Below, one piece after another: positions 2,393-3,577 of a DNA stretch of 19,021 nt. The stretch covers positions 81,148 through 100,168 of the forward strand of contig CABIYQ010000008.1 of assembly GCA_902362965.1 (NCBI GenBank). The letters run 5' to 3'. Under the pieces are notes generated by a model. That model was not told the origin of the DNA. It saw nothing but the letters and a program-made list of their open reading frames with translations, and made no database searches. This DNA comes from Oscillospiraceae bacterium. Lineage in GTDB: Bacteria; Bacillota; Clostridia; Oscillospirales; Ruminococcaceae. The position numbers were made by a program, and so were the translations under genes. Numbering within the stretch: position 1 is the first letter of the stretch; each line of letters opens with the position of its first letter.

Positions 2393-2414
2393 AAAGGGCT
2401 ATAAAAAGCCCTTT
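2393..2414 (-). terminator. Terminator of the TIR gene (possibly bidirectional)
   Basis: AAAGGGCT (2393-2400) pairs with AGCCCTTT (2407-2414). On the minus strand it is followed by GTTTTTTATA, a good U-tract, which ends the TIR transcript. It also lies directly after the plus-strand amidase. Confidence 0.75.
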
Positions 2415-2439
2415 ACCTCATATAATTACACATGAATAT

Positions 2440-2856
2440 TTATATATTTTTTATGGCTTCAATCAAGGATTTGGAATTCCAGCCAATCATTATATTTGAA
2501 TTATTTTGAATTTTAGTTGGAATATGTTGCTGACCCCATGGTTTTAATCCTATTATGTATTTTTCCATTGAAATGGCTGTTTCTATTTCAAAATCAATCC
2601 ATTCACTATAGTTTGCATACATTCCCGAAATAATAATAATGGCTGATGATGGTCTAATTTGGGTTTTTAACATTTCTTTTAATTTTTTCTTCCCAACGAT
2701 AGAATTAGAATCAATTAAAGGATCGTGTTGTGGGACTGAGTAATTTTTATAAATTAGTTCTTCATTTTCTTTTGCACTTTTTAGCCATTTTTCAACAGTA
2801 TAATAATCTTCATTATACTTCCAAGCGTGGCTAATAAACAAGTTATACTCTTTCAT
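2440..2856 (-). CDS. TIR-like domain protein (MTH538/ThsB-type), candidate immune sensor
   Basis: The 138-residue protein is a single TIR-like domain. It begins YNLFISHAW (residues 4-12), has a central KNYSVPQHDPL segment (37-47), the core IRPSSAIIIISGMYANYSEW (68-86) and ends with IIGLKPWG and MIGWNSKSLIEAI. The motif SEWIDFEI carries the presumed catalytic Glu90 of TIR NAD-consuming enzymes (SxWxxxE). The domain matches the MTH538 TIR-like family that includes ThsB of Thoeris antiphage systems, which makes a nucleotide signal after infection. AAAGGA lies before the ATG and a terminator follows the stop. Its strand-mate is the SLATT membrane protein (3077-3518); no ThsA gene is visible. A role as TIR sensor plus membrane effector is inference. 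Confidence 0.82.
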   Translation of the reverse strand: MKEYNLFISHAWKYNEDYYTVEKWLKSAKENEELIYKNYSVPQHDPLIDSNSIVGKKKLKEMLKTQIRPSSAIIIISGMYANYSEWIDFEIETAISMEKYIIGLKPWGQQHIPTKIQNNSNIMIGWNSKSLIEAIKNI

Positions 2857-2894
2857 AATAAATAAATCCTTTCTGATAAAATGTAGGTGGTAAT

Positions 2895-3080
2895 ATGATA
2901 AAAAAATACAGAAAAAAACCTGTAATTATAGAGGCATATAAAACTGACAAACCTGTTGTAATAAAAACACTTGAAGGGGATATGAAAGCTTCTATAGGAG
3001 ATTTTATTATTACAGGTGTAAATGGCGAACAATATCCATGTAAACCTGATATTTTTGAAAAAACTTATGAAGAAGTTTAG
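2895..3080 (+). CDS. PGDYG-family phage protein, function unknown
   Basis: This 61-residue protein has the pattern of a very common small phage protein: KYRKKPVIIEA at the N-terminus, then EGDMKASIGDFIITGVNGE, then YPCKPDIFEKTYEEV. The IGDFIITG stretch corresponds to the PGDYG-type motif. No biochemical role is established to my knowledge. TAGGTGG precedes the ATG. It stands divergent from the TIR gene and runs tail-to-tail into the SLATT gene with a four-base overlap, so it is nested antiparallel between the two minus-strand genes. Confidence 0.8.
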   Translation: MIKKYRKKPVIIEAYKTDKPVVIKTLEGDMKASIGDFIITGVNGEQYPCKPDIFEKTYEEV

Positions 3081-3518
3081 TTTTTTTCTTTATTTGATGT
3101 GTTATTAATGTTTACATGAATAGATTTCCATTGATTATTTTCAGATGAAATAATTTGTTCTATGTTTTTAACAAACATGTTTTCTACTGTTTCGTTTGTT
3201 GTATTATACGGAGACGATTTTGTTAAAAAAACATATTTTTGGTATTTTAATAGATGTGGTTCTGTATTGTATCCAGTTTTCATGATACTTGAATAATTTA
3301 GTAAAAGATTCTAAAATTGTAATAATAATTCCAAATATTCCTACAATTATTGATATTAAGAACGTATTGCAATATCCGGATAACAAAGGTATTATTGCAG
3401 CTAAAATAATTTCAACTATTTGTATTAATTTATATCGTTTTTGGCAAAGCAATGATTTTTTATCATACCAAGCGATTTGTGGATCTAATCGGTTTGTTAT
3501 ATATTCTTGTATATTCAT
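3077..3518 (-). pseudogene. DUF4231/SLATT two-TM membrane protein, frameshifted
   Basis: From ATG 3518 (AAGGAG just upstream) the frame encodes MNIQEYITNRLDPQIAWYDK, then two membrane spans (about VEIILAAIIPLLSGY and FLISIIVGIFGIIITILESF), then KLFKYHENWIQYRTTS. The conserved remainder, LLKYQKYVFLTKSSPYN...IISSENNQW, continues in another frame to the stop at 3077. The break is near 3247-3256, where loss of five bases would explain the pattern. DUF4231 belongs to the SLATT group of two-TM domains, predicted pore-forming effectors that are coupled to nucleotide-signal and TIR sensors in bacterial immunity. The gene has its own promoter (3549-3577). It may be inactive, or the shift may be a sequence error. 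Confidence 0.78.
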
Positions 3519-3548
3519 ATTTTTCTCCTTAAGAAATCTAATATTATA

Positions 3549-3577
3549 AATATACATTATTTTCCAAGAAATGTCAA
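3549..3577 (-). promoter_or_regulatory. Promoter for the SLATT (and perhaps TIR) gene
   Basis: Minus strand: TTGACA (3577-3572), a 17-base spacer and TATATT (3554-3549), about 30 bases before the SLATT start codon. It points against the late phage genes, and a terminator hairpin at 3594-3625 insulates its upstream side. Confidence 0.75.

What the first reader, a model, noticed from the sequence alone, without database searches (positions are those of the whole stretch)
2393..3577. TIR-like plus SLATT membrane protein as an independently transcribed moron
Seen: two minus-strand genes opposed to the late genes, a TTGACA-17-TATATT promoter upstream, terminators at both ends. Known: MTH538-type TIR domains include the Thoeris signal-making enzyme ThsB, and DUF4231 is a SLATT two-TM domain, a predicted pore effector in nucleotide-signal immunity. 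Inference: the pair is a two-gene antiphage or superinfection-exclusion module in which the TIR enzyme activates a membrane effector in place of ThsA. I know of no described system with this exact pair.
Basis: partly seen in the sequence, partly recalled or inferred. Interest (0 to 1): 0.85.

Follow-up and report, generated by a model that had tools for sequence, protein, structure and literature searches.

The report
Phage TIR–SLATT module with antisense gene
A prophage carries a two-gene immune module (a TIR enzyme and a membrane protein) with a small third gene lodged between them on the opposite strand, and that third gene probably switches the module off when the prophage itself wakes up.

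Summary
The pair is not new: PMC9503650 (passages) reports TIR next to SLATT in Firmicutes phages. What I found in no paper is the antisense PGDYG gene. Of 89 distinct loci with this TIR subfamily, 45 have SLATT within 1.5 kb and 33 have PGDYG, antisense in 33 of 33; 30 (window included) have the window's exact order. A SLATT-centred viral scan agrees: antisense PGDYG in 10 of 10 loci, 5 on contigs already counted. PGDYG is under protein-level selection. In staphylococcal phages 187 and X2, PGDYG+TIR+SLATT lie between the flanks that in phage 80alpha hold ith+tha, PGDYG directly behind the sequence that precedes ith. Ith is the antisense-encoded inhibitor of the defence protein Tha (PMC11087260, passages). 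Best reading: a lysogen-expressed TIR-to-membrane-effector defence with its own antisense-encoded inhibitor, a noncontiguous operon like Tha/Ith and Tai/Ati. The inhibitor function is inferred. The window's SLATT frame is broken, so this copy may be dead or misread.

The parts
2440..2856 (-). TIR gene, 138 aa, ThsB_TIR family; W86 and E90 conserved
   Evidence: PF08937 59.4 bits; E90 invariant in the 26 sequences of A1, window included, and Glu in 86 of 89 distinct loci, 2 gapped, 1 a frame-broken copy; AlphaFold pLDDT 90.5, Foldseek to MTH538, B. cereus TIR and ThsB among others
2895..3080 (+). PGDYG small protein gene, 61 aa, antisense between TIR and SLATT; predicted cognate inhibitor
   Evidence: phrog_419; PF14083 below its cut-off; RBS-like sites in most module copies; codon-position differences 0.249/0.192/0.611, pN/pS 0.27 over 30 loci; antisense in 33 of 33 TIR loci that have it
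3077..3518 (-). SLATT/DUF4231 two-TM membrane gene, reading frame broken: N-part ORF ends at 3204, C-part lies in 3077-3283 in another frame
   Evidence: intact close protein P0122
3549..3577 (-). sigma-A type promoter TTGACA-17-TATATT for SLATT and, through antisense of PGDYG, TIR
   Evidence: 11 of 12 matches; strong sites (12 of 12) upstream of SLATT also in L006 and L039, both opposed to lytic genes; over 28 loci the scan is only about 2 sd above shuffles
2388..2419 (-). intrinsic terminator after TIR
3594..3620 (+). intrinsic terminator on the plus strand, beyond the SLATT promoter: a PGDYG transcript that ran on would be antisense to all of SLATT
   Evidence: read-through is inference
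2792..2819 (+). weak candidate promoter for PGDYG inside the TIR gene (9 of 12)
   Evidence: not clearly above chance
1546..2352 (+). prophage endolysin (Amidase_3) facing the module: context, lytic direction, same strand as PGDYG

Best explanation
The locus is a prophage immunity cassette in noncontiguous-operon form. In the lysogen one minus-strand transcript makes SLATT and TIR; between the two ORFs it is antisense to PGDYG. On infection by another phage the TIR enzyme is proposed to make an NAD-derived signal that opens or assembles the SLATT two-TM protein in the membrane, stopping the cell. PGDYG reads in the lytic direction; when the resident prophage is induced, PGDYG transcription rises, runs head-on into SLATT-TIR transcription, and the PGDYG protein neutralises TIR, its signal or SLATT, so that the phage does not block itself. 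Shown here: gene content, order and strand, their recurrence, protein-level selection on PGDYG, its orientation against integrases and along lytic genes, and PGDYG+TIR+SLATT standing in the place of ith+tha between homologous flanks in two staphylococcal phages. Inferred: the transcripts, the signal, the membrane effect and the inhibition by PGDYG. The window's own copy is probably not functional as read, since SLATT is frame-broken.
For: Recurrence: 30 of 89 distinct TIR loci (window included) have exactly SLATT, antisense PGDYG, TIR; 2 more end before SLATT; 1 has TIR-SLATT-antisense PGDYG; antisense in 33 of 33. SLATT-centred viral scan: antisense PGDYG downstream in 10 of 10 loci, 5 of them on contigs not in the TIR scan. 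Another order, still antisense: SLATT-TIR-antiPGDYG in SN10, phage 187, X2, S-CoN_Ph21, Javan282 and L124. Geometry over 30 loci: stop overlap median 9.5 bp (range -9 to 61), head gap median 47.5 bp (23-95). Direction, tested in 21 of the 30 loci: PGDYG opposite an integrase in 11 and on the strand of an endolysin, terminase, head or resolvase gene in 9, window included; L002 undetermined. Slot: 80alpha 1421-1521 (directly before ith) matches phage 187 2881-2982 (directly before PGDYG) at 92%, and 80alpha 2560-2605 (start of tha) matches 187 4011-4056 (start of SLATT) at 93%; phage X2 the same, 94% over 143 bp and 93% over 46 bp; no match inside the cassettes. 22 records (17 phages) hold at least 80% of the phage 187 cassette. 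Precedents: Tha/Ith, Tai/Ati. Distances over 28 loci correlate: TIR-SLATT r 0.49 (0 of 2000 permutations), TIR-PGDYG 0.26 (3), SLATT-PGDYG 0.26 (43).
Against: No experiment. PGDYG is also a common free-standing phage gene (756 of 50,697 phage records), seen in replication, nucleotide-metabolism and other operons, so it may have another job; 10 of 20 short-form and 60 of 60 long-form viral copies have no SLATT/TIR within 2 kb. 14 of 45 SLATT-bearing loci have no PGDYG, and these are not cleanly non-phage (3 of 66 flanking genes in 13 of them are integrases; the fourteenth, L096, is a viral contig). The PGDYG promoter scan is inconclusive (8.30 against 7.73 +/- 0.29 in shuffles). The flank match to 80alpha is good in 187 and X2 only; in SN10 (48 bp at 81%, 27 bp at 93%) and S-CoN_Ph21 (64 bp at 80%, 23 bp at 87%) it is weak. 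PGDYG shows no sequence link to Ith or Tad2. Some flanking genes in several module loci run either way.
Confidence: 0.62

Rival explanations
1. A plain two-gene TIR-SLATT defence; PGDYG is an unrelated phage gene trapped between the two once and carried along.
For: PGDYG is a widespread phage gene found mostly without TIR/SLATT; SLATT and TIR occur directly adjacent without it in 9 loci and in reverse order in 4.
Against: Kept intact under purifying selection while SLATT falls to 34% mean identity; at least two other arrangements, all antisense; stands with TIR-SLATT in the place of ith-tha in phages 187 and X2.
Confidence: 0.15
2. PGDYG is the trigger or co-activator: the module guards a conserved phage protein and its own copy tunes sensitivity.
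For: PGDYG is found in many phages, as would suit a trigger.
Against: A trigger made in the lytic direction by the host prophage would cause autoimmunity; in the homologous slot of 80alpha the antisense gene is an inhibitor, not the trigger.
Confidence: 0.1
3. Only the antisense arrangement matters: PGDYG transcription switches SLATT-TIR off by interference and the protein is irrelevant to the module.
For: PGDYG lies wholly between SLATT and TIR on the other strand; the plus-strand terminator lies beyond the SLATT promoter; in Tha/Ith the antisense promoter plays a minor role.
Against: Protein-level selection and ribosome-site-like sequences; in Tha/Ith the protein is the main inhibitor.
Confidence: 0.08
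4. Not a defence: a decayed or life-cycle related moron of other function.
For: The window's SLATT frame is broken.
Against: Intact relatives; catalytic-type Glu kept in 86 of 89 loci; the same TIR family pairs with 8xMP membrane proteins (9 of 10 chosen neighbours).
Confidence: 0.05

Closest known systems
TIR-SLATT gene neighbourhood of Firmicutes phages (PMC9503650, passages seen)
   Same: TIR plus SLATT in Firmicutes phages, including SN10, which I fetched; sometimes with HTH or zincin peptidase genes, as near the module in L090 and L016.
   Different: The passages do not mention an antisense gene or PGDYG (0 hits for PGDYG, antisense and opposite strand in the main text; figures are not held).
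Tha/Ith of S. aureus prophages (PMC11087260, abstract in a listing and passages seen)
   Same: Defence gene in the lysogeny operon next to int, with a small gene of 66 codons on the other strand; phages 187 and X2 have the same flanks.
   Different: Tha is a single HEPN RNase whose gene overlaps ith; Ith shows no sequence similarity to PGDYG.
Tai/Ati of phage phi80 and relatives (PMC11364771, passages seen)
   Same: Immune gene transcribed against the late operon, counter-defence gene on the lytic strand, as in the window, L003, L005 and L082.
   Different: Different proteins; Tai interferes with tail assembly.
Thoeris (ThsA/ThsB; definition recalled, tested with PADLOC and Pfam models)
   Same: ThsB-type TIR.
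   Different: No ThsA in the ORFs scanned; SLATT stands in its place; antisense PGDYG.

Membership tests
TIR-SLATT phage module (PMC9503650) | TIR gene in the neighbourhood of a 2TM SLATT gene in a Firmicutes phage | tested here: met
   PF08937, PF14015 and PF18181 hits over cut-off; phage head, tail and lysis genes in the window. That the host is a Firmicute is inferred from relatives
Thoeris | ThsB TIR protein | tested here: met
   PF08937, PADLOC ThsB model PDLC00418 E 1.8e-13
Thoeris | ThsA effector (SIR2-SLOG or TM-macro; recalled) next to ThsB | tested here: not met
   SLATT, PGDYG, endolysin and the LRR/transglutaminase gene beside TIR scanned against Pfam: no such domain
Thoeris | cyclic ADP-ribose or His-ADPR signal | not testable with these tools
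   catalytic-type Glu present only; its role is recalled
Noncontiguous operon with immune gene and antisense inhibitor (Tha/Ith, Tai/Ati) | gene on the opposite strand lodged inside the immune operon | tested here: met
   gene positions only; no transcript data
Noncontiguous operon with immune gene and antisense inhibitor (Tha/Ith, Tai/Ati) | antisense gene has its own promoter | tested here: inconclusive
   phages 187 and X2 share with 80alpha the sequence directly upstream of ith; in the window and other loci no clear promoter
Noncontiguous operon with immune gene and antisense inhibitor (Tha/Ith, Tai/Ati) | antisense product inhibits the immune protein | not testable with these tools
   needs experiment
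Tad2 sponges (PF11195) | match of PGDYG proteins to the Tad2-like Pfam profile | tested here: not met
   0 of 38 PGDYG proteins match PF11195 at E up to 1; hhalign probability 0.35% and 0.15%, with a narrow Tad2 alignment and a single Tad2 sequence, so weak tests
Tad2 sponges (PF11195) | shared fold | tested here: inconclusive
CBASS | CD-NTase gene next to the SLATT effector | tested here: not met
   none among the neighbouring genes scanned

The most novel reading that the evidence does not exclude
PGDYG proteins, a phage family with no assigned function in the libraries searched, are inhibitors of TIR-SLATT (Thoeris-like) immunity: built into the module as antisense self-protection, and carried alone by many other phages as counter-defence, as Ith-2 is said to be in phage 7206 (PMC11087260, passage).
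Probability: 0.38. Interest if true: 0.85.

Novelty: new variant of a known kind. Interest (0 to 1): 0.66.

Why it matters
It gives a concrete, testable role to PGDYG, a phage protein family seen by tblastn in 756 of 50,697 phage records, and suggests that prophages can exchange a whole immunity-plus-antidote cassette as a unit in one chromosomal slot. It would turn the antisense antidote arrangement, known to me from Tha/Ith and Tai/Ati, into a wider rule, and would explain how a phage can carry a TIR-membrane suicide system without harming itself.

Tried and rejected
PGDYG as a Tad2-type sponge: suggested by Foldseek rank but not by E-value, profile comparison or Pfam; left open, not claimed. 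PGDYG as Acb4: Acb4 is PF13876 (passages). PGDYG as an Ith homologue: no similarity found. PGDYG relatives among solved structures by sequence: best E 1. A conserved PGDYG promoter in the TIR gene: inconclusive. A clean split between phage-borne modules with PGDYG and chromosomal ones without: only a tendency. SLATT-centred genome survey: too rare to count (6 of 398 genomes, three of them at E about 5e-4). Single-sequence viral scan with the TIR: nothing confirmed. tblastn of the SLATT N-part in phage records: no match. VIA-align hits show only a common small-barrel arrangement. No tRNA and no Rfam match at gathering score in the window. Whole genome of the window not held. First alignment of the S-CoN_Ph21 flank took the wrong stretch; compared again.

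Full report
What is there. The window is phage: head, baseplate and lysis genes, on a contig whose whole genome is not held. Between the endolysin (1546-2352, +) and an LRR-transglutaminase-dockerin gene (3639-5048, -) lie a TIR gene (2440-2856, -; PF08937 59.4 bits), a small gene on the other strand (2895-3080, +; phrog_419 E 1.7e-26; PF14083 PGDYG 22.4 bits, below its cut-off of 27), and a SLATT/DUF4231 gene (3077-3518, -). The SLATT gene is in two frames: the N-part matches DUF4231 and SLATT_1, the C-part matches the end of phrog_7395.

Signals. The minus-strand promoter TTGACA-17-TATATT (3577-3549) scores 11 of 12, the best of 23 sites; the site count itself is not above shuffles (18.4 +/- 4.5), the terminator count is (4 against 1.2 +/- 1.2, one hairpin counted on both strands). 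A minus-strand terminator follows TIR. The plus-strand terminator at 3594-3620 lies beyond the SLATT promoter, so a plus transcript from PGDYG could cover all of SLATT in antisense (inference).

The TIR protein. The catalytic-type Glu (E90; its role is recalled, not tested) is invariant in 26 aligned sequences, window included, and is Glu in 86 of 89 distinct loci, gapped in 2 and different in one frame-broken copy. The model (pLDDT 90.5) is closest to MTH538, nucleoside deoxyribosyltransferases and related N-glycosidases, with a B. cereus TIR and ThsB further down the list.

Recurrence. With the TIR alignment A1 (one subfamily, two conserved peptide patterns) I fetched 79 loci from the collection of 84,980 species genomes and 20 from viral contigs (the first answer is capped at 80) and searched them with profiles for SLATT, PGDYG and TIR. 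With the window and after removing 11 near-duplicates, 89 distinct loci remain: 30 SLATT-antiPGDYG-TIR (window included), 9 SLATT-TIR, 4 TIR-SLATT, 1 TIR-SLATT-TIR, 1 TIR-SLATT-antiPGDYG, 2 antiPGDYG-TIR with the contig ending before SLATT, and 42 with TIR but no SLATT found within 1.5 kb (11 of these lie within 1.3 kb of a contig end, so SLATT may be cut off). All 33 PGDYG genes are antisense. The hosts of the 30 include Bacillus, Anoxybacillus, Paenibacillus, Selenomonas, Veillonella, Lachnospiraceae and one archaeal MAG (Methanosuratincola; its SLATT is in two frames). A separate SLATT-centred scan of viral contigs gave 10 loci, which I had left out of these counts: 10 of 10 have antisense PGDYG downstream; 5 lie on contigs already, 5 are new; 3 of the new ones have the gap of a gene between SLATT and PGDYG, but no TIR of this subfamily. 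Of 37 of the SLATT-less TIR loci listed for neighbours, I sent ten with predicted membrane neighbours to Pfam: nine are 8xMP octameric membrane proteins; a few other membrane neighbours were not sent. So this TIR family is often paired with a small membrane protein.

PGDYG is a protein gene. Most module copies have ribosome-site-like sequences before the start. Over 30 loci codon positions differ by 0.249, 0.192 and 0.611, pN/pS 0.27; synonymous sites are mostly saturated (14 of 435 pairs below pS 0.6), so the ratio is rough. The module form is usually short: among 80 viral PGDYG loci, 10 of 20 short forms (match up to 68 aa, a cut chosen afterwards) have SLATT/TIR nearby, all antisense, against 0 of 60 long forms (Fisher p 1.1e-7). 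Two module copies (L014, L065) have the long insert. The predicted fold is a small six-stranded barrel with a C-terminal helix (pLDDT 93.3).

Direction. In lysogeny-type loci the order is repressor, SLATT, antiPGDYG, TIR, integrase, with an M78 peptidase in some. I tested 10 genes, first or second after TIR and chosen for integrase-like length: 10 of 10 are integrases on the TIR strand, and L043 has a serine integrase there. HTH repressors and M78 peptidases near the module were confirmed in a chosen set. In the other type the module is turned against lytic genes: of nine chosen flanking genes three are endolysins, three terminases, one head, one resolvase and one unknown, all on the PGDYG strand. 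The window, with its endolysin, is of this second type. So 21 of the 30 loci were tested, 20 agree, one (L002) is undetermined, nine were not tested; other flanking genes run either way in several loci. Strong promoters before SLATT occur in the window, L006 and L039, all of the second type.

The slot. In staphylococcal phages 187 and X2, PGDYG, TIR and SLATT lie between integrase and repressor side (TIR and SLATT of 187 by profile; the RefSeq record of X2 names them TIR and DUF4231). In phage 80alpha the same place holds ith and tha. DNA comparison: the 101 bp before ith match the 102 bp before PGDYG of 187 at 92%, including a TATAAT hexamer and ribosome site, and 46 bp around the start of tha match the start of SLATT at 93%; X2 agrees (94% over 143 bp, 93% over 46 bp); inside the cassettes there is no match. 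In SN10 and S-CoN_Ph21 the same flanks are recognisable but weak. Ith has been shown to inhibit Tha, and the arrangement to be needed for immunity without autoimmunity (PMC11087260, passages; its promoter reporter used the 215 nt upstream of ith). 22 of 50,697 phage records, 17 phages, hold at least 80% of the phage 187 cassette; 230 records match the flank, 92 of them over at least 80% of it.

How it most likely works. Lysogen: SLATT and TIR are made. Infection: TIR makes a signal, SLATT disturbs the membrane (inference; PMC9503650 predicts SLATT to be an effector regulated by ADPr derivatives). Induction: PGDYG is made, its transcription opposes SLATT-TIR, its protein blocks the system. Which component PGDYG touches is open. 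Foldseek put anti-Thoeris Tad2 chains on top, but at E 0.45, and no profile link was found.

What is known. The pair is in PMC9503650 (passages). Antisense antidotes are in PMC11087260 and PMC11364771 (passages); the latter predicts more such pairs. I found no paper naming PGDYG (0 papers) and no mention of an antisense gene with TIR-SLATT in the passages seen; the ten searches cover only an open-licence library, so prior description elsewhere is possible.

Limits. All function is inferred. PGDYG is common outside the module. 14 of 45 SLATT-bearing loci lack PGDYG. A neighbour survey of 13 of 20 genome-derived loci with PGDYG and 13 of 14 loci without shows a tendency only: with PGDYG, HTH repressors (7 of 77), integrases (5 of 77) and M78 peptidases (4 of 77); without, restriction-modification, nuclease and TIR genes, but also integrases (3 of 66); only the 25 commonest families were shown.

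Noticed in passing
window 393-692/15382-15681, 955-1116/15712-15873, 1106-1527/10385-10754: Direct repeats of 83-300 nt at 85-99% identity: a tail-gene end, a small gene after it and a promoter-bearing stretch occur twice, suggesting two or more related prophages or a rearranged one.
   Followed up: partly
window 3639-5048: Minus-strand protein with BspA-type LRRs, transglutaminase core and type I dockerin, pointing to a Ruminococcus-like gut host (inference); the closest named SLATT relative is from Porcipelethomonas.
   Followed up: no
window 5352-5633 and 5777-6055: C-terminal integrase fragment and a transposase HTH piece near it, perhaps marks of a rearranged prophage border.
   Followed up: no
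window 16796-17536 and 17797-18903: D12 adenine and C5 cytosine DNA methylase genes downstream of a second lysis gene.
   Followed up: no
L028, L029, L032, L037, L050, L055, L061, L063, L078, L095: The same TIR family lies beside small membrane proteins, 9 of these 10 of the 8xMP octameric family, apparently a sister system of TIR-SLATT.
   Followed up: partly
BFVD hits; phage record hit H68: PGDYG-like folds or overlapping features carry names such as nicotinate ribosyltransferase and QueE, a possible link to nucleotide or NAD metabolism.
   Followed up: no
L036 (SLATT), L077 and L100 (TIR): Some relatives also have a SLATT or TIR gene split over two frames, so decay of the module may be frequent, or assemblies err there.
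   Followed up: no
L189, L190, L193: SLATT with antisense PGDYG about 0.4-0.6 kb downstream and no TIR of this subfamily between: probably further TIR or other enzyme variants.
   Followed up: no
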